A stretch of DNA of 33,198 nucleotides from Tabrizicola sp. GTDB taxonomy: Bacteria > Pseudomonadota > Alphaproteobacteria > Rhodobacterales > Rhodobacteraceae. Below the pieces are notes generated by a model, which did not search any database, was not told the DNA's origin, and worked only from the letters and a program-made list of their open reading frames with translations. Positions 21,496 through 33,198 of the stretch are shown in pieces. The stretch spans positions 1-33,198 of the forward strand of contig JALOTD010000078.1 in assembly GCA_025458105.1 (NCBI GenBank), in the 5' to 3' direction. Positions within the stretch are counted from its first letter, which is position 1; each line of letters begins with the position of its first letter. The translations under genes and the position numbers were made by a program.

Positions 21496-24400
21496 ATGAG
21501 CAATTTTGACGCCCTCGTTGCCAAGCTGCGCGAAATCTTCCAGATCGACCGGCCTGACCTCGATTTTGGGGCCGCCGGGGCTGCGGCGAATACCGAAACG
21601 CTGAAGGCTGATATCGCCAAGGCCGAAAAGGCGGCCGAAGACGCGGGCATCAGCGCTGACCAGTCGCCCAAGGTCCAAGACCTTCGCGCCCAGCTGGCCG
21701 CCGCCAGCGCAGGCGCGTCCGAGCATGAGAACCAGGTCTTCTCGCACCTGCTCACTTTCTTCTCGCGCTATTACGATAAGGGCGATTTCATCAGCCAGCG
21801 CCGCTACAAGGGCGACACCTATGCCATCCCCTATTCCGGGGAAGAGGTCGTGCTGCACTGGGCTAACCGCGACCAGTATTACACCAAGTCGGGCGAGTCC
21901 TTTTCGAACTTCAGCTTCAAGCTGGATGACGGCCGCGCCGTCCACTTCCGCCTTGTCGCGGCCGACACCGCCAAGGACAACCGCAAGGACAATGACAAGG
22001 AACGCCGCTTCGTGCTGGCGACTGCCCGCACCGTTACCCGCACGGATGAGGATGGCGAGACCTATGAGGAGACCATCCAGCCGGTGGCCGAGGAAGATGG
22101 GGCGCTGGTGATACGGTTCGACTATGCCCCGCAGCCCAAGGGCACCAAGCAAGAGGCGCTGGTCGATCAGGCCGTTACTGCGATCCTGGACGATGATGCC
22201 GTCAGGGCGCGCTGGCTGGCGCTGACCACCCGCGCGCCCACGGAAAAGAACCCCAAGCGCACGGTCCTGGAAAAGCATCTGACGACCTACACCCAGAAGA
22301 ACACCGCCGATTACTTCATCCACAAGGATCTGGGCGGCTTCCTGCGGCGGGAGCTGGATTTCTACATCAAGAACGAGGTGATGAACCTCGACGATGTGCA
22401 GGGGGCCGAGGCCTTTGCCGCCATCGAAAAGAACCTGCGGATGATCCAGTGCCTGCGCGCCATCGCGCTGGACCTGATCACCTTCCTCGCCAGCATCGAG
22501 AATTTCCAGAAGAAGCTGTGGCTGAAGAAGAAATTTGTGGTGGCCGCGCAGTATTGCGTGACGCTGGACCGGGTGCCGGAGGCGCTTTACCCCGCCATCG
22601 CGGCGAACCCCGCGCAATGGGCGCAGTGGCATGATCTGGGCATGCGAGTATCGGCAGCGGCGGGGATGGTGGAGGATCTGAAGGCCGCGCCCTTCCTGAT
22701 GGTGGACACCGCGCTGTTTGATGCGGGGTTCCGGGCCGATCTGCTGAAGGCGATCCCCGATCTCGATGCCAGCCTCGACGGGCTCTTGGTCCATGGCGAC
22801 AATTTTCAGGCGTTGACGCTGTTGGGGGACCGGTATCGGGAGCAGGTGAAATGCGTTTATATTGATCCTCCCTATAACACGGGAAGCGATTTTCTTTACA
22901 AGGATGCATTTCGTAACTCCTCGTGGCTAACGATGCTGGATAACAGAATCCAAGCATCGCGCAGCATGGTTTCGCGGGATGGTGTGTTTTACGTTCATAT
23001 CGACGATAAAGACGAAGACAATCGAACCAGCCATCGCTTGATGAATATGATGGAGGATCGATTTGGGACGAAGAATTATCTCGACAACCTCGTTTGGGTG
23101 AAAAACACGACTCATAACGATGCGAAGGCGTTCTCTCATAACCATGAGTACATCCTAGCATTTGCGGTGGACCGAGAGATTGCAGCGGCGACACACAAGA
23201 TGTTTCGGATAGCCAAGCCAGGGTTTGAGGAAGTTCAAAGCTTGACCGCAAGGCTGAACAAAGATTTCCCGCCGATAGATGTCGTGCGTTCAGCTCTGCG
23301 CAACCTCTATTCAGAACAGGCGGCTAAATTCAAGGAGGAGTGTAAAGTTCTCGGGCTGCCGTGGGATGAAGAGACGCAGCGTCTTGATCCATGGAAAGGT
23401 ATCAAACAGTACAAGTTTGCTGACTACCGCGATGAGAAGTTCCAGTGGGTTGACCCAAAGGATGCGAGGGCCAAGGGGGCCCGCCTTCGAGTCTACCGTG
23501 AAGATAATCCTTCGTGGCCGAATGCAAATACACTGACTAATGCGCACAAAGACCCTACGAACGACGAGTATCGATTCTACAAGCCACTTCATCCAACGAC
23601 AAACTTGCCGTGCCCTGCACCCGCTCGTGGCTGGCTGTGGCGGAAGACCCCGAATCCGGAACGTCCGAGCACACTCTCGTTTGACGTCTTGGTCGACCGT
23701 CACCTGATCCATTTTGGAGAAGACGAAAACAAGGTTCCTCAGTTCAAGCGCTTCTTGGAGAATGTTGACAGTGATGTTGTCAAATCGGTCATAACAGACT
23801 TCACAGATGGCGAGAAAGAGGTCTCACACCTTTTTGGGGCTCGCGGCAGCTTTCCCAATCCAAAGCCGACTCCGGTTGCACAGAAGCTTATCGAAATAAC
23901 TGCGTCATCCGGTGAAGTTGTATTAGACTACTTTGCTGGCAGTGGGAGTACCGGGCACTCGGTAATCAAGCTAAACCGTTCACTCGGGACCAGTGTTCGC
24001 TATATGCTGATTGATATAGGCGACCACTTTGAGAATATTCTGCATCCGCGGATGCAGAAGGTAGTTTACTCTTCTGACTGGAAGGATGGCAAACCCACCG
24101 CCCCCGAAACCGGCATCAGCCATGCCTTCAAGGTGCTCAAGATCGAGGGCTATGAGGACGCGCTGAACAACCTCGACCTGAAGCGGTCGGACGCGCAGGC
24201 CAGCCTTCTGGAAGGCTTCAGCGCGGACAAGCGCGACGATTACCTGATGCGCTACATGCTGGATGTCGAGGCAAAGGGATCGCTCCTCTCCGTCCAGGAC
24301 TTCCGCAAGCCCTTTGACTACACGCTCAAGATTTCCGTCGACAGCGCCGGTGCCTGGGAGGCGCGCAAGGTCGATCTGGTCGAGACCTTCAACTACCTGA

Positions 24401-24723
24401 TCGGCCTGACCGTCCGCAGCATCGACATCCAGCTGAAGCAGGGCTTCGTCACGGTCGAGGGCTGGCTGCCTACCGGCGAAAAGACCCTGATCCTGTGGCG
24501 CGACTGCGAAAAGATCGGTTACGAGGAACTAACGCGCCTCTGCGACAAGCTGGCGATCAACCCGGCCGACAGCGAATACGACGTGGTCTACATCAACGGC
24601 GATCACAACATCCCCTCGGTGGTGGAAACGACCGAGGAAGAAGGCAGCGTCGTCAAGAAGCTGATGCTGCGCCAGATCGAACCCGCCTTCCTGGACGCCA
24701 TGTTCAACGTGGATGACGTCTGA
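21496..24723 (+). CDS. site-specific adenine DNA methyltransferase (Mod-like)
   Basis: This 1075-residue protein is a beta-class N6-adenine methyltransferase: the catalytic VYIDPPYNTGSDFLYKDAF near residue 457 precedes the AdoMet-binding VLDYFAGSGSTGHSVI near residue 813. The roughly 350 residues between them hold the target-recognition region. The N-terminal 440 residues are an extra helical region not seen in small type III Mod proteins. The central section (about 22855-24075) is clearly AT-richer than its flanks, suggesting that the catalytic and recognition part was exchanged. The ATG follows AAGGAAAAC. The stop overlaps the res start (TGATG). It should methylate host DNA to protect it from the adjacent Res. 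Confidence 0.88.
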   Translation: MSNFDALVAKLREIFQIDRPDLDFGAAGAAANTETLKADIAKAEKAAEDAGISADQSPKVQDLRAQLAAASAGASEHENQVFSHLLTFFSRYYDKGDFISQRRYKGDTYAIPYSGEEVVLHWANRDQYYTKSGESFSNFSFKLDDGRAVHFRLVAADTAKDNRKDNDKERRFVLATARTVTRTDEDGETYEETIQPVAEEDGALVIRFDYAPQPKGTKQEALVDQAVTAILDDDAVRARWLALTTRAPTEKNPKRTVLEKHLTTYTQKNTADYFIHKDLGGFLRRELDFYIKNEVMNLDDVQGAEAFAAIEKNLRMIQCLRAIALDLITFLASIENFQKKLWLKKKFVVAAQYCVTLDRVPEALYPAIAANPAQWAQWHDLGMRVSAAAGMVEDLKAAPFLMVDTALFDAGFRADLLKAIPDLDASLDGLLVHGDNFQALTLLGDRYREQVKCVYIDPPYNTGSDFLYKDAFRNSSWLTMLDNRIQASRSMVSRDGVFYVHIDDKDEDNRTSHRLMNMMEDRFGTKNYLDNLVWVKNTTHNDAKAFSHNHEYILAFAVDREIAAATHKMFRIAKPGFEEVQSLTARLNKDFPPIDVVRSALRNLYSEQAAKFKEECKVLGLPWDEETQRLDPWKGIKQYKFADYRDEKFQWVDPKDARAKGARLRVYREDNPSWPNANTLTNAHKDPTNDEYRFYKPLHPTTNLPCPAPARGWLWRKTPNPERPSTLSFDVLVDRHLIHFGEDENKVPQFKRFLENVDSDVVKSVITDFTDGEKEVSHLFGARGSFPNPKPTPVAQKLIEITASSGEVVLDYFAGSGSTGHSVIKLNRSLGTSVRYMLIDIGDHFENILHPRMQKVVYSSDWKDGKPTAPETGISHAFKVLKIEGYEDALNNLDLKRSDAQASLLEGFSADKRDDYLMRYMLDVEAKGSLLSVQDFRKPFDYTLKISVDSAGAWEARKVDLVETFNYLIGLTVRSIDIQLKQGFVTVEGWLPTGEKTLILWRDCEKIGYEELTRLCDKLAINPADSEYDVVYINGDHNIPSVVETTEEEGSVVKKLMLRQIEPAFLDAMFNVDDV

Positions 24724-27700
24724 TGGCGCGGTCTCCGAAGAAGAAGCGCACCTTCCATCAGGAGCTGGTGCTGAACCGCTGGATGCTGAGCCATTTCCAC
24801 GGCGATGGCCTGATGACGCTGAAGGCGCGGCTGGGCGAGGACCGGCACGAAGGCATTGACGACGACGGCCAGACCAAGTTCTTCCACGAGCTGACGCGCA
24901 ACCTGTTCAACATGGACCGGGTGACCGAGGCGGAGCTGCGCCGCTATGACCTGAATATCGTCGCCCACTGGCAAAAGATCACCCATCGCCGCAACGCCGC
25001 CACCGGCGAAGTGCTTACGATGAAGTATTTCCAGTACCTGTCACTCCTGTTCACCGAGATCTACCTCGACTGGTATTTCAACCGTCGGCAGGACCTGCTG
25101 GACGGTCTGAACGCCCAGATGGCCGAGTATCGTGCGGAGGATGGGGCCGAGGATTTCAAGGACTACAGCGCCGACGACCTGAACAAGCTGGCCTTCTGGA
25201 ACGCGACCGGCAGCGGCAAGACGCTGATCCTGCATGTGAACATCCTGCAGTATCTGCATTACTTCCAGGCGGGGAATGCCAACCTGTTCCCCGACCGGAT
25301 TATCCTGCTGACCCCGAACGAGGGCCTGTCGCGCCAGCATCTGGAGGAATTCCGCGAGTCCGGCATCAACGCCCATGTCTTCGACAAGAACCAGACCGGT
25401 TCGCTGTTCAAAGGCTGGGTGGATGTGATCGAGGTCACGAAGCTGGCCGACGAGATGGGCGACAAGACGGTCGCTACCGGCGCGTTCGAAGGCAACAATC
25501 TGGTGCTGGTCGATGAAGGCCACCGCGGCACCGGCAGCGCGGGCGGCGTCTGGATGGCGCGTCGCGCGGCGCTGGTGAAGGGCGGTTTCGCGTTCGAATA
25601 CAGCGCGACCTTCAGCCAATCGGTCGCCAAAGGATCGACGGTTGCCAAGGCCGAGGATGACATCCTGAAGGCCAAGGCGAAGCGGCTGTTCGACAAGACG
25701 CTGAAACAACTGGACGACACGCAGCGCGCCCAGTTGCAGTTGACGGCCGAAGATCGGGCCCGCGCCAAGATCGACGGCATCCGCGAGGCTTACGCCAAGG
25801 CCGTGCTGATCGATTACAGCTACAAGTATTTCTATGCCGACGGGTACGGGAAAGAGTCCCTGATCCTGAACCTGGACGACAAGGGTTACGACAAGCACGG
25901 CGACCTGTATTTCACGGCCTGCCTGCTTAGCTTCTACCAGCAGCTCTGGCTCTGGGACACGCACCGCAACAAGATCAGGGACTTCAACATCGAGAAGCCC
26001 CTTTGGGTTTTCGTTGGCAACACGGTGGCCGGTGAGGACAGCGACATCCTCGAGGTCATCAAGTTCCTGGCCTGGTTCCTGAACCGTCCCAACGAAGCGA
26101 CCAATTGGATTGCCGATCTTGTTGCTGACAAGGCGCGGCTTCTAGACCCCAAAGGCAACGACATCTTCGCCGGGCGCTTTGCGCCCCTTATGCAGCGCGA
26201 TGCCGCCACGATTTATGCCGATATCCTGAAACGGCTGTTCAACGCGAATGCCCATCAGCGTTTGAAGCTGGTGAACCTGAGGAACAGCAAGGGTGAATTG
26301 GCCCTGCGGGTTGGATCGTCCGATCCTTTCGGCCTGATCAACATCGGCGACGATTCAGGGTTCTTCAAGAACGCTGAGGACAGAAGCGATTTCGACACCG
26401 AAGGGGATGATTTCGGGACTGGCCTCTTCGGTACCATCAACCAGAGAGACAGTAAGCTGAACATCCTGATCGGGTCGCGGAAATTCACCGAAGGGTGGTC
26501 AAGCTGGCGGGTTTCGACCATGGGCCTGCTGAACATGGGCCAAGGCGAAGGCTCCCAGATCATCCAGCTTTTCGGCCGAGGCGTCCGCTTGAAAGGGCGT
26601 GGCATGTCGCTGAAACGGTCGCTCCCCGCTGAGCGGCCCAAGGGAACGCACATGGAACGCCTTGAAACTCTGAACATCTTCGGTGTCCGCGCGAATTACA
26701 TGGCCACATTCAAGGACTACCTGAAGGAAGAGGGTATCACGCCGAGCGACGAGATCATTCAGCTCGACTTCGAGACCAGAACGAACCTGCCGTCAGGCAC
26801 ACGGCTCAAGACGCTGAAGCTGAAAGACGGCTACAAAGACAATCAGATCAAGGGCTTCAAGCGCGTCCACTTTCCGATGCTATACGATGTCCCGGCCGAG
26901 TTCGCGGGCAAGATCAAGCCTCCGCACGTTGTGCTGGACCTTTATCCTCGGGTGGAAGCGATCACTACCACGCCTAACGCAACTGCCAGCGCACCGGACA
27001 AGCGACATCGCGGCAAACTGAGCAAGGCGGCAGTCGCGTGCTTTGATTGGGACGCCGTGTTCACCGCCGTTCAGGAATACAAGCTACTGAAAAGCTGGAG
27101 CAATCTGAAGGTCGACCGAGAGCGCCTTTGCAAGTTTTGCCTTGGCGACGACAGCTGGTACACCCTCTTGATCCCCCAAGCGGAACTGGAGGTGTCGGGC
27201 TTTTCAGATGTGCTCCGTCAGCAGGGCATCATGCTTCAGCTGCTCACCGATTACACGGACAGGTTCTATCAGGGCCTGAAGGCGGCCTACGAAGGCAAGT
27301 TCTATGATGTTGCGCCGGTCACAGAGGACTCCGGATCGATCATTAAGCTATACCAGTTCGAGATCGAGAACACCGATGACGGCCTCGAGTACAAGGCAAA
27401 GCTAGAGGCCCTATCCGCGCTAGTTGCGTCGGGAAAGCTCGGAGAGGCCAGCAAATGGAGCGCACCAAATATGGTGGCGATCAGCTTTGGCCAGCACCTC
27501 TACTACCCCCTGCTATCACCGAGCAAAGATGCAGCCGTTCCGCTCAAGATGCGGCCACTCGCGCTTGGAGAGCCGAGTGAGGTGCAGTTCGTCGAGGATT
27601 TAGCGGCATTCTACGAATCTTCGGCAGGAAAAGACAGGCTGAAGGGTTACAGCCTCTACCTTCTGCGCAATGCCGACAACCGGGCCAAGGGCCTCGGATT

Positions 27701-28055
27701 TGCCCTGGCAGGTAACTTCTATCCTGACTTCTTGCTGTGGTTGGTGGACGATGAAACCGGCAAGCAGTGGCTATCTTTCATCGATCCAAAAGGCATACGC
27801 AACCTGAGCCTTTCGGACCCAAAATTCGGTTTGTATAAGGCGATCAAGGAGATTGAGAAACAGCTCGGCGACATGACGATAAGCCTTAACTCTTTCATTC
27901 TGTCGGTCACGACATTCAACGACCTGCTCAACCTCGCAGGCTCAACTACGAAGTCTGGTCTTGAAGATCAGAACGTTTTGTTCATGGAGGATGGTGGCCC
28001 AACTTACTTGCCGAAGTTGATTGATCGGGTGATTTCCCGGCCGTCTTTAGTCTGA
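24723..28055 (+). CDS. type III restriction-like Res helicase-nuclease
   Basis: This 1110-residue protein pairs an SF2 helicase (FWNATGSGKTLILHV near residue 161, LVLVDEGHRGTGS near 264) with a C-terminal PD-(D/E)xK nuclease segment (NFYPDFLLWLVDD then WLSFIDPKG, about residues 998-1023). This is the architecture of type III Res subunits, which translocate or switch on DNA and cut it together with Mod. DEGH replaces the usual DEAH. It overlaps the mod stop by one base, so the two are co-translated. The gene is intact. Adjacent SNF2 and RecQ-UvrD genes suggest a larger composite system. Confidence 0.87.
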   Translation: MARSPKKKRTFHQELVLNRWMLSHFHGDGLMTLKARLGEDRHEGIDDDGQTKFFHELTRNLFNMDRVTEAELRRYDLNIVAHWQKITHRRNAATGEVLTMKYFQYLSLLFTEIYLDWYFNRRQDLLDGLNAQMAEYRAEDGAEDFKDYSADDLNKLAFWNATGSGKTLILHVNILQYLHYFQAGNANLFPDRIILLTPNEGLSRQHLEEFRESGINAHVFDKNQTGSLFKGWVDVIEVTKLADEMGDKTVATGAFEGNNLVLVDEGHRGTGSAGGVWMARRAALVKGGFAFEYSATFSQSVAKGSTVAKAEDDILKAKAKRLFDKTLKQLDDTQRAQLQLTAEDRARAKIDGIREAYAKAVLIDYSYKYFYADGYGKESLILNLDDKGYDKHGDLYFTACLLSFYQQLWLWDTHRNKIRDFNIEKPLWVFVGNTVAGEDSDILEVIKFLAWFLNRPNEATNWIADLVADKARLLDPKGNDIFAGRFAPLMQRDAATIYADILKRLFNANAHQRLKLVNLRNSKGELALRVGSSDPFGLINIGDDSGFFKNAEDRSDFDTEGDDFGTGLFGTINQRDSKLNILIGSRKFTEGWSSWRVSTMGLLNMGQGEGSQIIQLFGRGVRLKGRGMSLKRSLPAERPKGTHMERLETLNIFGVRANYMATFKDYLKEEGITPSDEIIQLDFETRTNLPSGTRLKTLKLKDGYKDNQIKGFKRVHFPMLYDVPAEFAGKIKPPHVVLDLYPRVEAITTTPNATASAPDKRHRGKLSKAAVACFDWDAVFTAVQEYKLLKSWSNLKVDRERLCKFCLGDDSWYTLLIPQAELEVSGFSDVLRQQGIMLQLLTDYTDRFYQGLKAAYEGKFYDVAPVTEDSGSIIKLYQFEIENTDDGLEYKAKLEALSALVASGKLGEASKWSAPNMVAISFGQHLYYPLLSPSKDAAVPLKMRPLALGEPSEVQFVEDLAAFYESSAGKDRLKGYSLYLLRNADNRAKGLGFALAGNFYPDFLLWLVDDETGKQWLSFIDPKGIRNLSLSDPKFGLYKAIKEIEKQLGDMTISLNSFILSVTTFNDLLNLAGSTTKSGLEDQNVLFMEDGGPTYLPKLIDRVISRPSLV

Positions 28056-28161
28056 GAGGTCAACACTAGGTCAATCGGGCAGTCAAACTCGTCCACCGTT
28101 CGGTCTACGTCCATTTCTATCGGCTGCTGTGGGAGGCGGCATGGTAACGAACAGCAGAGCG

Positions 28162-28185
28162 TTGGGGGTATAACTGGGGGTATTG
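28162..28185. repeat. integrase arm-type repeats, right end
   Basis: TTGGGGGTATAA and CTGGGGGTATTG are tandem copies, in the same orientation as the pair at 9217-9240 and differing from it at three of 24 bases. They lie 59 bases before the degenerate tRNA-end copy. Between them is an AT-rich stretch (about 28186-28240), a common feature of attachment regions. Confidence 0.6.
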
Positions 28186-28244
28186 CTCTATTGTTTGCTT
28201 TAAGATATAATAAAAAACAATAACTTAGATGAAGGATGTGAGTG

Positions 28245-28258
28245 CGGCTCTGGCACCA
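28245..28258 (+). other. probable attR core (degenerate tRNA-Phe 3' end)
   Basis: CGGCTCTGGCACCA matches the last 15 bases of tRNA-Phe with one G missing. It is in direct orientation to the tRNA and beside the right-hand arm repeats, as expected for the distal attachment site. The single deletion suggests decay or an imperfect earlier recombination. Confidence 0.55.
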
Positions 28259-29337
28259 TTTACACCGCCACCGCATTGATAGGTATCGTTTTGTTGACGA
28301 TGGCGTACGGGTGGCTGTGGTCTCGAAGTCGAGGGGCGCGGATCGGGGTTTTGGGGTCGTCGCTTGCACTTGCTGCGCGACGGCGTGGCGCATGAAATGG
28401 TCCTCGTTCATTGGCTCTGCTTCGGGAAAGGCCGACCGTAGCTGACCACATAGCGCGTTGCGGCTTCACTGGCGTGAGGGCCCGACCCTGGTGACAAAGT
28501 GGACCAATGCGGGCTGGCCGCCGGGCCTTGCCCAAAAGCAACCGCCTGCGGACGGCGCAGCGCTGAAAGCCGTCGGTGATGTCACGCGTCACCATCTGAC
28601 GGCGAAGTCTGCCCCGTCGATCTCGAACCGGTGCGTGGTATTGCCACTTAAGGCCCTGATCGAGGCCGTGGGGTGTCGAGAGAAATCGGGTTTGGTCGCG
28701 CTGAAGTGCGGCAATGGTCAAAGGACAATAGTGAAGGGGGCACCTGCCCCTAAACGCGCCTGGCTGGGCTTGCCGTGCACACGGAGTCAGGACCGATGGA
28801 TGTGCTTGCGGCTACTCTGACCCTGAAACCTGAAAGGCTGTACCTGAAAGGGAGGCGCGATCTGATCGGGCTGCCCAAAGCCGCCATGATCGGGGTCGAT
28901 GCCGGGTCGGGCCGACCACGGCAAGGCGCGAAGGGATGACCTGCCGCCATTGATCGGCGCAATCCTCATCCCTTGAGATGTCTCTCGGTTATTCAGTATG
29001 ACCCGGAAGCCCGTCGCAAGGTCCTGGCTATTGCTGGTGCCTGTAGAGTCAAGTCGGTCCGGCGCGGTCGATACGGCTGCCGCACTTCAGGCCCTGGCGC
29101 ATCTGATCGAGCGCACGAATGGTGGGCAGACCACCGAGCCACAGGCCGTGACGGCGGATTAGGGACCTTCCGCGGCAGTTCTTCACAGGCGCGGACCAGG
29201 CCAACGACTGCATCTGCGCAGCGCATGGTTGGGCAGCGTGACTTGCGCCAGATGTTCCAATGCCTTCATCTGCGACATGGCCCTGACCCTTATGCCGTTT
29301 GTCTGGCTTTGACGACCAGGACGGCTGACGCTAGGGA
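28259..29337. other. gene-poor region between the island and rtcB
   Basis: About 1.1 kb shows no gene that I can support. The longest frames (28260-28721 minus; 28458-28820 plus; 28973-29404 plus) have no recognisable motif and no good ribosome site. A 53-codon frame from ATG 28998 to TAG 29160 ending LIERTNGGQTTEPQAVTAD is the least unlikely small gene. The stretch looks like decayed sequence left by earlier insertions next to the attachment site. Confidence 0.4.
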
Positions 29338-29360
29338 ACCCGGCGCTGTCAGCGCCGGGT
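29338..29360 (-). terminator. hairpin at the 3' end of rtcB
   Basis: The arms ACCCGGCGCT and AGCGCCGGGT are perfectly complementary over ten bases with a three-base loop, overlapping the last codons and stop of rtcB. It has no T-tract after it, but it ends the rsr - Y RNA - rtcB transcription unit and is followed by more than 1 kb without a gene. Confidence 0.6.
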
Positions 29361-30770
29361 CCGCTTATGTTTCTGCCAGGCAGGGGGGAGGTCCCCAGCC
29401 ATGATGCAGCCGAAGGGGTCGATGCAGTCGACGACATCGGCCAGCCCGTAGTCGGCGATCTGGCGCATCACCTTCTCGGCGGGCTTGTAGCTGGACGGCA
29501 GTTCGGAGGCATCGACCGCCCCGGCGTGGAAGCGGATGTCGAGGCCCTTCGTCTCGGCCGCCAGCATCTGGTCGGGCGTCACCCCTCCCATCCGGCGCTT
29601 GTGTTCGGTCCGCGAGAAGTTGCGGCCCGCGCCATGCGGCGCGAATCCCAAGGCATGACCGGCGTCGCGTCCGCGCACCACCAGAACCGGCTGGGCCATG
29701 TTCAAGGGGATCAGGGTCAGCCCCGTCGCATCCGCCGCATAGTCCCCCCAGGCCGGGGTCGCCCCCTTGCCGTGGTAGTAAAGATCCCCGCGCCGGAAGA
29801 CGAAGTTATGCTCGTTCCAGTAGCGGTCCCCCGGGCTGGCGCGCAGTCGTTCCACCACTGACTGGTGCAGCGCGTTGTGGTTGGCCTTGGTCCAGCGCCG
29901 GATGATCTGCAGCGCGTCCCAGTAATCCCGCCCTTCCTGCGTGTCCGCCGGAATCCAGGCGTTCTGCTTCAGCGTCGCGGGCGACAGCTCGCGGCGGAAG
30001 CGTTCGGCGACCTCCATCCCGTACTTGTACAGAAGCCCCCCCGGCCCGCGCGAGCCATGGTGCGTGACCATTGCCACCCGCCCCGTCGCGCGGCTGCGCC
30101 CGATGAACAGGAAATGGTTCCCGTCCCCTTGCGTGCCCATATGCGCCTGGGCGGCATGGATCATCCGCCCGTCCTTGAGGAACGGATTGCTGCGAAACTC
30201 GTCCATCAGGTCGAGCGAGACGGTATAGCGGTTCCCCTGATCGCGCCCGCCGGGGCCGAAATGGGTGATGGCGCTCGCGGCATCGAGCGCGGCCTTCGGG
30301 TCGACATGCCCAAGGTCGGTGATCATCACGCTGCAGCAGATGTCGGCCGAATGCATCCCCGGATGGATCGCGTTCCGCGTCGCCACCACGCCGCCCACCG
30401 GGATCGTCCCCAGCGGGCCCGCCGGGCAGGCGTCGGGCATGATCGAGCCAGCGACGGCGGTCGGGGTCTTCAGAACCTCGGTCATCGTCGCGGTCACGTC
30501 GGCGAGGTTCTTTTCCTCGTCCGGATCCTCGGCGCGGATGTTGATGTTCAGGGGAACGGCCCCTGCCGGTTGGCGCGGCAAGGTCGGCGCTGCCGGGGGC
30601 GGCAGATCCGCGCTCAGCATCTCGCGCACGCTGTCCATGGCGCGGCCTTCGGCCAGAGCAGCATTGGCCCGGGCCAGGAGGCCTGGGAAGGCGGGGCCTG
30701 GGCGGTGGCCCCAGGCTTTCAGATCGTCCCCGGTGATGGGGTGGTTTGCTTCGGTCATCATCTCATTCAC
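29349..30770 (-). CDS. rtcB: RNA-splicing ligase RtcB
   Basis: This protein of about 470 residues is an RtcB-family ligase, which joins RNA ends bearing 2',3'-cyclic phosphate or 3'-phosphate to 5'-OH ends using GTP and Mn. Metal and guanylate residues are visible: SADICCSV (about 141-148, Asp and Cys), GTQGDGNHF (212-220), VTHHGSRGPGG (235-245) and the His that is guanylated in APHGAGRNFSRT (His379). DICC replaces the common DIGC. The frame opens at GTG 30770; ATG 30761 or 30758 are more likely starts. It is the last gene after rsr and the Y-RNA array on the same strand. No rtcA or rtcR is visible within the window. Confidence 0.9.
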   Translation of the reverse strand: MNEMMTEANHPITGDDLKAWGHRPGPAFPGLLARANAALAEGRAMDSVREMLSADLPPPAAPTLPRQPAGAVPLNINIRAEDPDEEKNLADVTATMTEVLKTPTAVAGSIMPDACPAGPLGTIPVGGVVATRNAIHPGMHSADICCSVMITDLGHVDPKAALDAASAITHFGPGGRDQGNRYTVSLDLMDEFRSNPFLKDGRMIHAAQAHMGTQGDGNHFLFIGRSRATGRVAMVTHHGSRGPGGLLYKYGMEVAERFRRELSPATLKQNAWIPADTQEGRDYWDALQIIRRWTKANHNALHQSVVERLRASPGDRYWNEHNFVFRRGDLYYHGKGATPAWGDYAADATGLTLIPLNMAQPVLVVRGRDAGHALGFAPHGAGRNFSRTEHKRRMGGVTPDQMLAAETKGLDIRFHAGAVDASELPSSYKPAEKVMRQIADYGLADVVDCIDPFGCIMAGDLPPAWQKHKRTRR

Positions 30771-30781
30771 TCATATCTCTG

Positions 30782-30915
30782 GCCCGGGCGACAAGGGTTT
30801 GGCGACACGTCGTGCCCTATCCAGCTGAGCTACGTGCGAATGGGCGCACGGCGGGGTTCGAACCCGCGACCACGAGGGGGACAGCCTGTAGTGCCGCACG
30901 GCATTCGCCGGGGTG
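30782..30915 (-). ncRNA. Y-RNA-like unit 6 (tRNA-like, nearest rtcB)
   Basis: Read on the minus strand, the outer stem is CCCCGGCGA with TCGCCCGGG (one mismatch or bulge), carrying GGCGAATGCC and CCTTGTCGCC. The inner helix GCGGCAC pairs with GTGTCGC, followed by CTACAG. The core has a T arm (GCGGG-TTCGAAC-CCCGC), then CGTGCG, a CCCATT loop and CGCACG (a closed acceptor-like stem), then TA and a D arm (GCTCAGCTGGATAGGGC). TCGTG and CACGA form the anticodon-like stem. The order T half before D half is a circular permutation of a tRNA. The fold matches the idea of YrlA: a Ro60-binding stem plus a tRNA mimic. Confidence 0.75.
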
Positions 30916-30923
30916 TTTCGGGT

Positions 30924-30990
30924 CCGGGGGACAAGGGATTGGGCAGACGGCGACAGTTTGGAGCTGTAATCCGCCCGGCATTCCCCCGGG
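30924..30990 (-). ncRNA. Y-RNA-like unit 5 (minimal, no tRNA-like core)
   Basis: This 67-base unit keeps the outer stem as CCGGGGGA paired with TCCCCCGG, a C-G to G-C covariation against the GGCGA/TCGCC of the other units. The conserved AATGCC and CCTTGT flanks are retained. The inner helix is GGGCGGA with TCTGCCC, then TTACAG. The remainder is a small stem ACAG-CTCCAAA-CTGT with no T or D arm. It may be a Ro60-binding stem alone. Confidence 0.65.
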
Positions 30991-30996
30991 ATATTC

Positions 30997-31072
30997 TGGC
31001 TGGAGGGGAAGGGTTCGAACCCTCGACCCGCGGGGTAACAACCCGCTGCTCTGCCAACTGAGCTACCCTCCA
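30997..31072 (-). tRNA. tRNA-Asn (GUU) inside the Y-RNA array
   Basis: This is a complete 76-base cloverleaf: acceptor TGGAGGG with CCCTCCA, D arm GCTC-AGTTGGCA-GAGC, anticodon stem GCGGG/CCCGC around TTGTTAC (anticodon GUU), variable GGGTC, T arm GAGGG-TTCGAAC-CCTTC, discriminator G and encoded CCA. U1 and G73 are usual for tRNA-Asn. It is separated from unit 4 by only five bases and from unit 5 by six. It is a normal, unpermuted tRNA, in contrast to its neighbours, and could be a working tRNA, a spare for repair, or the ancestor of tRNA-like units. Confidence 0.9.
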
Positions 31073-31077
31073 TCAGG

Positions 31078-31207
31078 ACCGGGGCGACAAGGATGAAGAG
31101 ACTCTGGGACCCCCGGCCACACCGATGGCCGCACGCATAGGTGGGGGCTTGAACCCCACAGGGTCACCACTGTGGTGCGCTGTAGTCCCTTCGGCATTCG
31201 CCCCGGT
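31078..31207 (-). ncRNA. Y-RNA-like unit 4 (divergent core)
   Basis: The outer stem ACCGGGGCGA pairs perfectly with TCGCCCCGGT over ten bases. AATGCC and CCTTGT are conserved, the inner helix is GGGAC with GTCCC, and CTACAG follows. The core has a hairpin CACCA-CAG-TGGTG, a T-arm-like GTGGGGTTCAAGCCCCCAC and a hairpin GGCCA...TGGCC, but no TAGCTCAG D arm. It keeps the frame of the family while losing half of the tRNA mimic. Confidence 0.65.
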
Positions 31208-31211
31208 ATTC

Positions 31212-31335
31212 GGGTCCGGCGACAAGGTTGGCAGGACGTCTTTTCACTGAGCTACGCTTTCGCGGCGCGAGTTGAACGCGCGACCTCCGGTTTCCCGGCG
31301 CTCTAACCTGTAGTCCTGCCGGCATTCGCCGGGTC
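31212..31335 (-). ncRNA. Y-RNA-like unit 3 (tRNA-like with GNRA-capped stems)
   Basis: The outer stem CCGGCGA pairs with TCGCCGG, and the inner helix GGCAGGAC with GTCCTGCC is a perfect eight base pairs, followed by TACAGG. A stem CCGG-GAAA-CCGG adds a GNRA tetraloop. The T arm is GCGCG-TTCAACT-CGCGC. The acceptor-like stem is cut to CGC-GAAA-GCG, again a GNRA loop, before TAGCTCAG with a weak D arm. The shortened, capped acceptor shows that this RNA cannot be made into an aminoacylatable tRNA simply by trimming. Confidence 0.7.
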
Positions 31336-31350
31336 GTTCTCCTTCTTCTG

Positions 31351-31475
31351 GTCCTGGCGACAAAGGGGGTGAACCTTTCCTTGCGGAAACTGCTCTACCG
31401 CTGAGCTACCGCCTGGTTGGGCGGGCAGGAGTCGAACCTGCGACCAATTGTAGTTCCACCGGCATTCGCCAGGTC
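31351..31475 (-). ncRNA. Y-RNA-like unit 2 (tRNA-like)
   Basis: The outer stem CCTGGCGA pairs with TCGCCAGG. The inner helix GGTG(G)AAC pairs with GTTCACC with one bulged G, followed by CTACAA. AATTG and CAGTT form the anticodon-like stem, with an added hairpin TTTCC-GCAA-GGAAA carrying a GNRA loop. The T arm is GCAGG-TTCGACT-CCTGC, then CCGCC-CAACCA-GGCGG as a closed acceptor-like stem, then TA and D arm GCTC-AGCGGTA-GAGC. The permuted order is T half first, D half second. Confidence 0.72.
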
Positions 31476-31488
31476 GTTCATTCGGTTA

Positions 31489-31620
31489 GCCCCGGCGACA
31501 AGGGTCGGCGACACGGTGTCTACTGCTCTACCGGACTGAGCTACGCGCCGGGTTGGACGCGGCGGGATTCGAACCCGCGACCAGAAGATTACTGTAGTGC
31601 CGCCTGCATTCGCCGGGGTG
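31489..31620 (-). ncRNA. Y-RNA-like unit 1 (tRNA-like, nearest rsr)
   Basis: The outer stem CCCCGGCGA pairs perfectly with TCGCCGGGG. The inner helix GGCGGCAC pairs with GTGTCGCC, followed by TACAG. TCTTCTG and CAGTAGA form an anticodon-like stem with one mismatch. The T arm is GCGGG-TTCGAAT-CCCGC. CGCGTCC and the GGCGCG before TAGCTC form the acceptor-like stem, joined directly by a short AACC-type loop. The D arm is GCTC-AGTCCGGTA-GAGC. The RNA therefore has no free acceptor end; its ends are at the outer stem, in the position of the anticodon. Confidence 0.75.
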
Positions 31621-31655: not shown

Positions 31656-33198
31656 TTACAGTTTGACCGCCCGGATCTCGCCGACCCAGTGGTCGGGGCC
31701 CATGCGGCCCTTGGCAAAGGCGGCGATCTGGTCGAAGACCGCGTCCGAGAAGCCGCCGATGTTCAGCACGTCTTCCCGTTCCGCCGCCTGCGCCGTCCCG
31801 TAGGGCTGGATGTCGATGCAGACCAGCTTTGCCGCCGTGTTACGGGCCTTGAGTTTCGTCCATTCCGTCATCATCGCCGTTCCTTGCCCGCCCTGACGAC
31901 CATCGACCCAGGACTGGTTGTCCGAGACGAAGATCACCAGGTCAGGCGCCAGGCCCGCCTTGTTCAGCGCCGCCAGCGGAGCCGAACAGTTGGTCCCACC
32001 CCCACCCAGCGCCGCAAGGCGCTCGGCGTTGGTCAGGATCGTGTCCCGCGCCTCAAGCCGGACATCCCGCACGCCCACCTCGAAGGGCAGAACGCGCGCG
32101 TCCGGGTTCTTGCGCACCACCGCCGCCGCGACCAGGGCCGCCACGTCGATGCAGCGCACCGCAGTGGTCGCCCCTTTCCGGTAGCCGGTCACGGGCGAGG
32201 ACATCGAGCCGGACACGTCCGGGCAGACCGCGACCGTGCCCTTCAGCACCGGCACGTTGGCAACCGAAGCCTCCATCGCGTCGTGCAGCGCATCGCGCAG
32301 CACGTCCGGCACTTCGGGCGACAGAGCCTTCAGCGTAGCCAGAAGCTGATAGGGCATTGCCTTCGCGGCCTTGATGCAGGCCGGATCACGCAAAGCCTTT
32401 GCCACATGCTGCGCTGCACCGGTCACCGTGAAGGCGCCCTTGCGGTGCAGCATGTTCAGCCCCTGCCGTTGCATTTGCCACGATCCCCGACATGCCACCT
32501 TGGCCCATTGCTCGGGCAAAAGCACCAGGTCGGACAGCATCTGGAACGGCACCTCCGGCACCTTGGCCGAAGCCCCGGCGCGGAAGGCGATCAGGTCCTG
32601 CACGACTTGCGGCAGCGCCGCGGTGTCGGCCGGTTTCCCGATCGCCCAGGCGTAGAAGGCCGCCCGCGACGCCGTTTCCGGCTTGGGGTGCACCATCCGG
32701 ATCACATCGGCCAGCGACGGGTCGTTCCCGACCATCGCCGCCATCAGCTGCGCATCCGTGGCACTATTCAGCCAGCCCTGCACCATCGCCTTGGGGCGCG
32801 AGCCGAGCGATTTCCGCCCAGTCCGTCCCGACCGCAGGATCTGCACGAAGGTCCGCAGCATCTTGCCCGAGGTCACGACCTGCGAGAAAGCCAGCGCGAA
32901 CAGCGCCGGATCGCGGGACGCCAGCACTGCAAGCAGCAGTGCAGGCGTGTCCTTCATGTGGCCCTTGGCCCGCACATGGACGGCGGCCTTGGCCAGAAAC
33001 AGCGGCTCCACCGCCTCGGCCGCGGCGACCAGCGCGGTCACTTCGGCCTCGGCATCCTGGTAGAACCCACCCCCGATGGTTCCGGTCATCGCCAGCTGCG
33101 CCAGCTTGTGCTCGGCATCGTAAGCGTAGGCCTTGGTCCCGTGGGCGGTCTGGGCGGCTGCCTTGGGCACAAGCCGCCCCACCACCGATGCAAACACG
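31656..33198 (-). CDS. rsr: Ro60/Rsr TROVE-vWA RNA-binding protein (5' end beyond window)
   Basis: At least 513 residues of a bacterial Ro60 orthologue are present. The start FASVVGRLVPKAA, then AYAYDAEHKLAQLAMTGTIGGGFYQ, is the usual N-terminus of the TROVE ring after a few residues, so the GTG at the window edge is probably internal. Helical repeats of the TROVE ring are followed by a von Willebrand A domain with the metal motif CPDVSGSMSS near residue 330 and FVSDNQSW later. Ro60 binds misfolded RNA and Y RNA; in bacteria the Y RNA tethers it to polynucleotide phosphorylase. The adjacent Y-RNA array and rtcB on the same strand fit this role. Confidence 0.9.
   Translation of the reverse strand, partial: VFASVVGRLVPKAAAQTAHGTKAYAYDAEHKLAQLAMTGTIGGGFYQDAEAEVTALVAAAEAVEPLFLAKAAVHVRAKGHMKDTPALLLAVLASRDPALFALAFSQVVTSGKMLRTFVQILRSGRTGRKSLGSRPKAMVQGWLNSATDAQLMAAMVGNDPSLADVIRMVHPKPETASRAAFYAWAIGKPADTAALPQVVQDLIAFRAGASAKVPEVPFQMLSDLVLLPEQWAKVACRGSWQMQRQGLNMLHRKGAFTVTGAAQHVAKALRDPACIKAAKAMPYQLLATLKALSPEVPDVLRDALHDAMEASVANVPVLKGTVAVCPDVSGSMSSPVTGYRKGATTAVRCIDVAALVAAAVVRKNPDARVLPFEVGVRDVRLEARDTILTNAERLAALGGGGTNCSAPLAALNKAGLAPDLVIFVSDNQSWVDGRQGGQGTAMMTEWTKLKARNTAAKLVCIDIQPYGTAQAAEREDVLNIGGFSDAVFDQIAAFAKGRMGPDHWVGEIRAVKL

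What the first reader, a model, noticed from the sequence alone, without database searches (positions are those of the whole stretch)
30782..31620. Tandem array of six diversified Y-RNA-like units with circularly permuted tRNA-like cores between rsr and rtcB
Seen: six minus-strand units of about 67-135 bases share AATGC after GGCG/GGGG on one side and CTTGT before CGCC/CCCC on the other. The outer and inner helices change sequence while keeping pairing (for example GGCGA/TCGCC versus GGGGA/TCCCC; GGCGGCAC/GTGTCGCC versus GGCAGGAC/GTCCTGCC). At least four units place a T arm before a D arm with the acceptor closed by a short loop. Known: YrlA-type Y RNAs mimic tRNA, bind Ro60, and occur near rtcBA with rsr. 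Inference: this is an expanded, diversified Y-RNA family, perhaps giving Ro60 several substrate adaptors. Array size and diversity may be undescribed.
Basis: partly seen in the sequence, partly recalled or inferred. Interest (0 to 1): 0.93.

Follow-up and report, generated by a model that had tools for sequence, protein, structure and literature searches.

The report
Y RNA array with spare tRNA
Between the genes for the RNA-binding protein Ro60 and the RNA-joining enzyme RtcB, this bacterium carries six Y RNA genes, most of them predicted to be shaped like transfer RNAs in several different ways, together with an extra transfer RNA gene; the cassette is likely switched on when transfer RNAs are cut and is predicted to help the cell mend and replace them.

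Summary
The six minus-strand units are Y RNAs between rsr (Ro60) and rtcB; a second contig, overlapping the window's end by 99 exact bases, puts rtcR divergently upstream. A motif scan finds 320 such units on the expected strand of the 80 closest rsr loci and none in three controls.

Two things were missed. (1) The heads differ. Three units have the known YrlA head. Unit 31214-31334 looks like a tRNA entered through the D loop, with a capped anticodon stem; 17 aligned units and a model built without the window support it, though its D stem hardly varies. One unit has a third head, one has none. (2) A tRNA-Asn gene lies inside the array. Of 80 loci, 40 carry tRNA genes there; 60 of 62 calls are Asn, Gln, Lys or Pro. 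The window's copy is a relative's tRNA-Gln changed only within positions 34-44.

Best reading: a tRNA-damage-induced repair-and-replace operon; function untested.

The parts
31490..31618 (-). Y RNA unit 1 in transcription order; YrlA-type head (Ro stem in place of the anticodon arm: T arm, closed acceptor, D arm)
   Evidence: Rfam RF02553 83.3 bits, above the gathering score of 69; motif scan
31352..31474 (-). Y RNA unit 2; YrlA-type head
   Evidence: RF02553 61.9 bits, below the gathering score; motif scan
31214..31334 (-). Y RNA unit 3; D-loop-entry head: D arm split across the module, anticodon-like stem capped by GAAA, T arm, short hairpin in place of the acceptor
   Evidence: RF02553 only 30.7 bits; covariance model R1, built without the window, 117.8 bits; 17 aligned units; acceptor hairpin only in the single-sequence fold
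31079..31206 (-). Y RNA unit 4; third kind of head (T arm plus another hairpin)
   Evidence: RF02553 21.0 bits, E 0.5; one of 49 units of this type found by motif, 43 aligned; weak support for an enclosing stem
30997..31072 (-). tRNA-Asn (GTT) gene embedded in the array, CCA encoded; the second tRNA-Asn gene among the 40 tRNA matches of this 90% complete genome
   Evidence: ARAGORN; RF00005 63.8 bits; differs from the array tRNA-Gln of L029 at 6 of 76 positions, all within 34-44; the other tRNA-Asn is L120
30923..30990 (-). Y RNA unit 5; headless, Ro-binding stem with a small loop
   Evidence: motif scan; folds to the two stacked helices
30782..30913 (-). Y RNA unit 6; YrlA-type head, weakest outer stem
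   Evidence: RF02553 52.1 bits; motif; missed by the stricter scan; fold z-score +1.04
31656..33198 (-). rsr, Ro60 orthologue; its first codons lie on contig C144
   Evidence: Pfam vWA_Ro60; profile A1 matches D. radiodurans Rsr 2nvo, E 2.6e-26; contig ends overlap by 99 exact bases
29349..30770 (-). rtcB, RNA ligase
   Evidence: Pfam RtcB, E 3.1e-37

Best explanation
This is an array of six Y RNA genes with a second tRNA-Asn gene embedded in it, between rsr and rtcB and behind a divergent rtcR, and it is likely a damage-induced repair-and-replace cassette in which Rsr is predicted to hold the common stem of each Y RNA, the differing tRNA-shaped heads would bring tRNA-handling proteins to it, RtcB would reseal cut tRNAs and the spare tRNA would refill the pool. 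Shown here: the units and their shared Ro stem, at least two head designs plus a third type and a headless unit by comparison of sequences, the embedded tRNA gene, and the gene order. Taken from the Salmonella work (PMC7790460): RtcR binds 5' tRNA fragments that end in 2',3'-cyclic phosphate and switches the operon on. Inferred: co-transcription, processing into single RNAs, binding by Rsr, charging and use of the tRNA, and the division of labour between heads.
For: Units specific to rsr loci: 320 against 0 in three controls. Ro stem: among 284 distinct units the fifth outer pair, which was not required though it counts in the scan's score, is paired in 98% with 157 two-sided changes; 198 of 284 inner helices have exactly 8 pairs. 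D-loop-entry head: 99.6% of cells paired, 14 of 27 pairs with two-sided changes (Ro inner helix 5, D stem 1, anticodon-like stem 3, T stem 5), a number reached by 0 of 500 shuffles; the model without the window finds it at 117.8 bits against 31-48 for the other window units. Leu-like version in 11 units. Embedded tRNAs: 40 of 80 loci; 60 of 62 calls are Asn, Gln, Lys or Pro; compensatory changes in their stems. Housekeeping tRNA-Asn is present besides, 99-100% identical in 11 of 12 genomes tested. rtcR divergent upstream in 75 of 75 loci with more than 1.7 kb upstream, and in this genome by contig overlap. rtcB downstream in 67 of 80. Reviewed role of YrlA, stem to Rsr and head to PNPase: PMC8394870 (passages).
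Against: No expression, binding or charging data. Half of the loci (40 of 80) have no such tRNA, and none of 10 rsr loci from a wider sample, with 1.5 kb flanks, has one. The D stem of unit 31214-31334 hardly varies in relatives (2 of 4 pairs invariant, one two-sided change) and is not in the single-sequence fold. Array tRNAs mostly keep the housekeeping anticodon loop: Asn 16 of 21, Gln 12 of 15, Lys 8 of 12; only Pro always differs (A37 in 12 of 12). So resistance by loop mutation is not the general rule. Array-Gln-like genes at 88% identity occur as lone genes in two rsr-less genomes. The cut tRNAs named in the Salmonella sections read (Trp, Tyr, Cys, His, Leu, fMet) are not the four identities found here. 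No standard sigma-54 site: 1 of 79 loci for each of two patterns. The promoter scan inside the array found nothing, but shuffles gave a mean of 0.0 too, so it says nothing.
Confidence: 0.55

Rival explanations
1. Decoys. The Y RNA heads and the embedded tRNAs are bait that would occupy or use up tRNA-cutting nucleases, or enzymes that modify tRNAs, rather than take part in repair or translation.
For: The heads copy tRNA cores but replace the anticodon arm or cap its stem, so they could bind without being cut; the Salmonella authors raise this for YrlA, of which no fragments were detected (PMC7790460). Array tRNAs mostly keep the housekeeping anticodon loop, as bait should.
Against: 58 of 60 tRNA calls encode CCA and the discriminator base is near constant in three families (Pro A 12 of 12, Asn G 20 of 21, Lys A 11 of 12), though mixed in Gln (G 10, A 5); the stems keep pairing through compensatory changes. 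Bait would need less. A Ro stem on every Y RNA points to a bound adaptor.
Confidence: 0.2
2. Punctuation. The tRNAs are mainly processing signals: RNase P and 3' tRNA processing would cut neighbouring Y RNAs out of one transcript.
For: tRNAs lie close to Y units: within 25 nt on the 5' side in 44 of 59 and on the 3' side in 38 of 54.
Against: In the window only one of five junctions between units holds a tRNA, and 40 of 80 loci have none. The restriction to four amino acids, with repeated change on the Rsr tree, is not needed for punctuation.
Confidence: 0.13
3. Duplication and drift. Extra units and tRNAs accumulated next to rsr without distinct roles.
For: Copy number and tRNA content are patchy; 30783-30911 folds no better than shuffles; in one genome of the same genus a single decayed unit stands before a scrap of rtcB without rsr.
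Against: Each head type recurs as its own class in many loci, two of them with compensatory changes; array-type tRNA-Asn of 89% or more identity lies beside rsr in four of four hits among 295 genomes.
Confidence: 0.1

Closest known systems
Bacterial Y RNA YrlA (Rfam RF02553; Salmonella rsr-yrlBA-rtcBA)
   Same: Ro-binding stem with conserved bulge, place beside rsr and rtcB, head with T arm, closed acceptor and D arm
   Different: Six units, only one above the Rfam gathering score; one has a D-loop-entry head, one a third type, one none; a tRNA gene lies among them
RtcR-controlled RNA repair operon (PMC7790460; passages and two sections seen)
   Same: rtcR divergent, rsr, Y RNAs, rtcB
   Different: No ORF long enough for rtcA between rtcB and the next gene in the window; embedded tRNA; no sigma-54 match in 78 of 79 loci for each of two patterns
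Anabaena trn operon, co-repressed with rtcB by TrcR (PMC10272220; passages seen)
   Same: Spare tRNAs, silent until translation stress, co-regulated with rtcB
   Different: 26 tRNAs on a plasmid, rtcB elsewhere, another regulator; 'Ro60' does not occur in the main text
Phage tRNAs that answer tRNA-cutting defences (PMC10264068, outline and abstract; PMC12409363, passages)
   Same: Extra tRNAs, Lys and Asn among them, that counter tRNA nucleases
   Different: Phage-borne, with loop or stem changes; here chromosomal and mostly with housekeeping loops
Jumbo phage RNA repair sets (PMC7824862; passages seen)
   Same: TROVE protein, RNA ligases and many tRNAs in one genome; in my scan 17 of 47 viral rsr pieces hold three or more tRNAs
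   Different: Broad tRNA identities; here four identities in a bacterial operon

Membership tests
Bacterial Y RNA (YrlA) | Two stacked helices with AAUGC on one side and CUUGU on the other | tested here: met
   six of six units; one has UUUGU
Bacterial Y RNA (YrlA) | Gene next to a Ro60 orthologue | tested here: met
   rsr 31656-33198
Bacterial Y RNA (YrlA) | tRNA-like head with T arm, closed acceptor and D arm | tested here: inconclusive
   met in three units; D arm split in 31214-31334; third type in 31079-31206; absent in 30923-30990
Bacterial Y RNA (YrlA) | Rfam RF02553 gathering score of 69 bits | tested here: not met
   met by one of six units (83.3); others 61.9, 52.1, 30.7, 21.0 and no match
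Bacterial Y RNA (YrlA) | Bound by Rsr; modified by DusA and TruB | not testable with these tools
   needs biochemistry; feature from PMC8394870
RtcR-controlled RNA repair operon | rtcR divergent from rsr-rtcB | tested here: met
   75 of 75 related loci with more than 1.7 kb upstream; own genome by a 99-base contig overlap
RtcR-controlled RNA repair operon | rtcA beside rtcB | tested here: not met
   no ORF over 153 aa inside 28056-29348; no homology search for rtcA was made, and the rest of the genome was not searched for it
RtcR-controlled RNA repair operon | sigma-54 promoter before rsr | tested here: inconclusive
   1 of 79 related loci for each of two patterns; L090 has a near match by eye
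Functional tRNA gene | Cloverleaf with compensatory changes, CCA, discriminator base | tested here: met
Functional tRNA gene | Transcribed and charged with Asn | not testable with these tools
   needs RNA from the organism
Nuclease-resistant replacement tRNA | Anticodon loop changed from the housekeeping tRNA | tested here: inconclusive
   window copy TTGTTAC against CTGTTAA; but 16 of 21 array Asn in relatives keep CTGTTAA

The most novel reading that the evidence does not exclude
A cellular repair-and-replace operon against tRNA cutting: the same switch that senses broken tRNAs releases a ligase, a set of Ro60-held tRNA mimics permuted at different points (anticodon arm or D loop, including a Leu-like version), and spare tRNAs for the few identities that nucleases deplete. 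The window's tRNA-Asn, recoded from tRNA-Gln by changing only the anticodon arm and the base next to it, records a switch in which tRNA must be replaced.
Probability: 0.35. Interest if true: 0.9.

Novelty: new variant of a known kind. Interest (0 to 1): 0.76.

Why it matters
What bacterial Y RNAs and Rsr do in RNA repair operons is open; PMC7790460 says its studies did not address their roles (passage). An array with several tRNA-mimic designs and spare tRNAs of four identities makes the question testable: which enzymes read which head, and which nuclease removes Asn, Gln, Lys and Pro tRNAs in these bacteria. It would also be a chromosomal counterpart to phage tRNA clusters; 17 of 47 viral rsr pieces hold three or more tRNAs.

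Tried and rejected
Array size as the novelty: rejected, since 63 of 80 loci have three or more units. Loop-mutation escape as a general rule: not supported. Sigma-54 promoter before rsr: two patterns, 1 of 79 loci each; left open. RF02553 alone as a census: it misses head types and rings, always below the cut-off, in 13 of 14 control genomes at E 10 and 11 of 14 at E 0.1, so I used a motif scan with controls. Third head as a pseudoknot: only an enclosing stem has weak support, 196 against a shuffle maximum of 186 in 200 shuffles; not claimed. Array-type tRNAs confined to rsr loci: holds for Asn (hits of 89% or more: four of four) and Pro (two of two, one being the query's own genome), fails for Gln (one of three beside rsr); the best Lys hit is 85%. 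At most three candidates a genome were scored in these searches, and some of the 295 genomes are those of the 80 loci, so the sets are not independent. A first nhmmer collection for the unit-3 type mixed head types and was replaced by classes. Cas13a and AriB as the nuclease: their preferred tRNAs (Lys, Glu, Gln, Thr; Lys, Thr, Asn) overlap the four identities but do not match them.

Rows dropped: one search kept the best 80 of 375 confirmed loci, so all counts are for the closest relatives. A2 holds 17 units, 16 relatives of the 17 classed D besides the window (L098 left out as an outlier); A3 holds 11 of 13 classed D_Leu (L026 and L048 were misclassed); A7 holds 43 of 49 (two without T loop, four near-duplicates); A6 holds 12 (window, L024, L028, L029, L031 left out on purpose); A4 holds 19 of 21 Asn; A1 holds 17 Rsr rows of 120 listed; the loop parser read 9 of 12 Pro and 3 of 12 Lys, the rest were read. 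One search covered 32 chosen sources. In one search one measure goes the other way: pair types 21 against a shuffled mean of 23.2.

Literature: nine searches, several with capped lists, showed no paper on tRNA genes in rsr-Y RNA arrays by title and start of abstract. Chen 2014, Burroughs and Aravind 2016, Sim 2018 and Sim 2020 are not held and were not read, so prior notice there cannot be excluded; that several Y RNAs beside rsr are known is recalled from them, and is also seen in the yrlBA naming of PMC7790460.

Full report
What is there. On the minus strand between rsr (31656-33198) and rtcB (29349-30770) lie six Y RNA units and one tRNA gene. In order of transcription: 31490-31618, 31352-31474, 31214-31334, 31079-31206, tRNA-Asn 30997-31072, 30923-30990, 30782-30913. 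The own genome shows no other array; four further RF02553 hits score below 20 bits. The window ends inside rsr; contig C144 of the same genome overlaps it by 99 exact bases, completes the start of rsr and carries rtcR in the divergent direction at 291-1844, 77% identical to that of L025. The Rsr profile matches Deinococcus radiodurans Rsr (2nvo, E 2.6e-26) and Ro60 structures.

Is it more than chance. A scan for the two stacked helices with the AAUGC and UUGU signature gives 320 units on the expected strand of 80 rsr loci (87,306 b), 0 on the opposite strand, 0 in one shuffle of each and 0 in 973,562 b of upstream strand. The 80 are the closest of 375 confirmed loci. Among 284 distinct units, outer pairs 5-7 pair in 98, 89 and 80%, with 157, 101 and 33 two-sided changes; 198 of 284 inner helices have exactly 8 pairs, and the ninth pairs in 8-33% of the three commonest registers. 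Limits: the first four outer pairs and a run of five inner pairs were required, further pairs count in the scan's score, and the inner register was chosen for its length. Single-sequence folds are at best mildly better than shuffles, and one unit is worse.

Heads. Three units carry the known YrlA head. Unit 31214-31334 differs: the strand from the Ro stem enters through the D loop, GGUUAGAGC on the 5' side faces GCUC on the 3' side, and between them lie a CCGG-GAAA-CCGG hairpin in the place of the anticodon arm, a T arm and a short hairpin in the place of the acceptor. RNAalifold finds the D stem, anticodon-like stem and T stem on 17 aligned units, 14 of 28 pairs with two-sided changes; it does not find the acceptor hairpin, which is in the single-sequence fold. 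Counted on 27 pairs, 99.6% of cells pair, and the two-sided changes (Ro inner helix 5, D stem 1, anticodon-like stem 3, T stem 5) are reached by none of 500 shuffles. The D stem thus rests on conserved complementarity more than on covariation, and the window unit's own lowest-energy fold lacks it; in the Leu-like class its letters differ (CGC with GCG instead of GAGC with GCUC). A model from 12 relatives without the window scores the unit 117.8 bits, the other window units 31.1-48.4. Eleven units are a Leu-like version (GGUAGACGC ... GUGGCGGAA): 97.9% of cells pair, 12 of 26 pairs have two-sided changes (9 in the Ro stem, 1 in the T stem, 2 in the acceptor), a number reached by 4 of 500 shuffles, while the count of pair types is not above shuffles. 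A hairpin where a long variable arm would be was seen by eye only. Unit 31079-31206 belongs to a third class of 49 units, itself included; its fold is unsettled. Unit 30923-30990 has no head.

The tRNA. ARAGORN and RF00005 (63.8 bits) agree on tRNA-Asn(GTT) with CCA. Of the genome's 40 RF00005 matches, one other is tRNA-Asn, 67% identical; that gene is 99-100% identical in 11 of 12 genomes with array tRNAs (the twelfth gave no match). In the nearest relative on the Rsr tree, L029, the array tRNA between the same two units is Gln(TTG), and the window's copy differs from it at 6 of 76 positions, all within 34-44. In the 80 loci ARAGORN reports 62 tRNAs inside arrays: Asn 21, Gln 15, Lys 12, Pro 12, one misread Y RNA at a contig end (L036) and one unclear (L060); seven outside are Met, Gly and Ala. 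No tRNA in the 80 loci lies on the opposite strand. 40 of 80 loci have at least one of the four kinds, and no tRNA call overlaps a unit of the scan. Stems covary in the Gln group with the window's Asn (8 pairs with two-sided changes, 1 of 500 shuffles) and in the main Asn group (4 pairs, 1 of 500). The fewest changes on a quick Rsr tree are 13 for Asn, 9 for Gln, 8 for Lys and 7 for Pro, so the same identities come and go repeatedly. The four kinds were noted after seeing the data, so I give no probability. In a wider sample of 398 genomes of the phylum 11 have an rsr match; none of the 10 besides the window's has a tRNA within 1.5 kb.

Specificity to rsr. Of 295 family genomes, 15 have rsr. 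Array-type tRNA-Asn at 89% or more occurs in four, each within about 500 bases of rsr; array-type tRNA-Pro in two, both beside rsr, one being the query's own genome; array-type tRNA-Gln in three, one beside rsr and two as lone genes with no rsr, rtcB or rtcR match in 9 kb. Of 47 viral rsr pieces, 25 hold a tRNA and 17 hold three or more, of broad identity; some have Y-like motifs among them.

How it would work. RtcR is divergent in 75 of 75 loci with more than 1.7 kb upstream; rtcB is found downstream in 67 of 80, and of the other 13, seven end within 1.6 kb and six have 5 kb without a match. In Salmonella RtcR binds 5' tRNA fragments with cyclic phosphate ends and switches on rsr-yrlBA-rtcBA (PMC7790460: passages and two sections). 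By transfer, the window's operon would be expressed after tRNA cutting. RtcB would reseal, Rsr would hold the Y RNAs by their common stem, heads would recruit tRNA-handling proteins (for YrlA the head is reported to bind PNPase, PMC8394870, passages), and the spare tRNA would refill. A precedent for stress-released spare tRNAs with co-regulated rtcB is the Anabaena trn operon (PMC10272220, passages). Phage T5 variants of tRNA-Lys, -Thr and -Asn inhibit the PARIS defence, whose nuclease AriB cuts these tRNAs (PMC12409363, passages).

Against it. There is no RNA or protein evidence; the tRNA is absent in half of the close loci and in the 10 wider ones; anticodon loops mostly equal the housekeeping ones (Asn 16 of 21, Gln 12 of 15; Lys 8 of 12), Pro being the exception; the tRNAs named as cut in the Salmonella sections read are others; the promoter scan of the array had no power. 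Decoy and punctuation readings remain.

Known and new. Several Y RNAs beside rsr are known in kind. The D-loop-entry and Leu-like heads and the four tRNA identities inside arrays were not met in the papers seen, but the main Y RNA papers are not held, so the claim is limited.

Noticed in passing
window 21496-28055: Type III restriction-modification pair (methyltransferase 1077 bits, restriction enzyme 1538 bits in PADLOC) next to the RNA repair operon.
   Followed up: partly
L052 6621-6781, L099 6623-6780, L068 6623-6782, L094 6623-6782, L041 6626-6784, L075 6982-7116: A conserved unnamed element without the Y signature, by eye a long stem around a T-arm-like GGUUCGACUCC, lies inside several arrays.
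   Followed up: no
upstream of rsr, e.g. L034, L052, L094 against L045: RtcR of many Rhodobacterales reads LFGQRRSYLGAAG or the like where L045 has GAFSGA (43 of 80 loci read); together with the missing sigma-54 site this may mean another promoter type.
   Followed up: partly
array tRNA-Lys, e.g. L099 6911-6985; array tRNA-Pro, e.g. L078 7412-7489: 11 of 12 array tRNA-Lys have a C2-A71 mismatch; 12 of 12 array tRNA-Pro carry A37 where the own housekeeping copy has G37.
   Followed up: no
L083 6804-6879 and L060 7170-7244: L083 has a tRNA-Lys on a different backbone; L060 joins a main-type Asn acceptor with the window-type Asn anticodon arm.
   Followed up: no
L011 1481-1650 and L023 8357-8431 (G017, same genus): A single YrlA hit of 62.4 bits with the bulge reading ACTGC, no rsr in the 16 kb seen, and a 25-residue scrap matching the start of RtcB: looks like the scar of a lost operon.
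   Followed up: partly
L242, L258, L244 (viral contigs): rsr lies within long tRNA clusters; L242 also has Y-like units between the tRNAs.
   Followed up: partly
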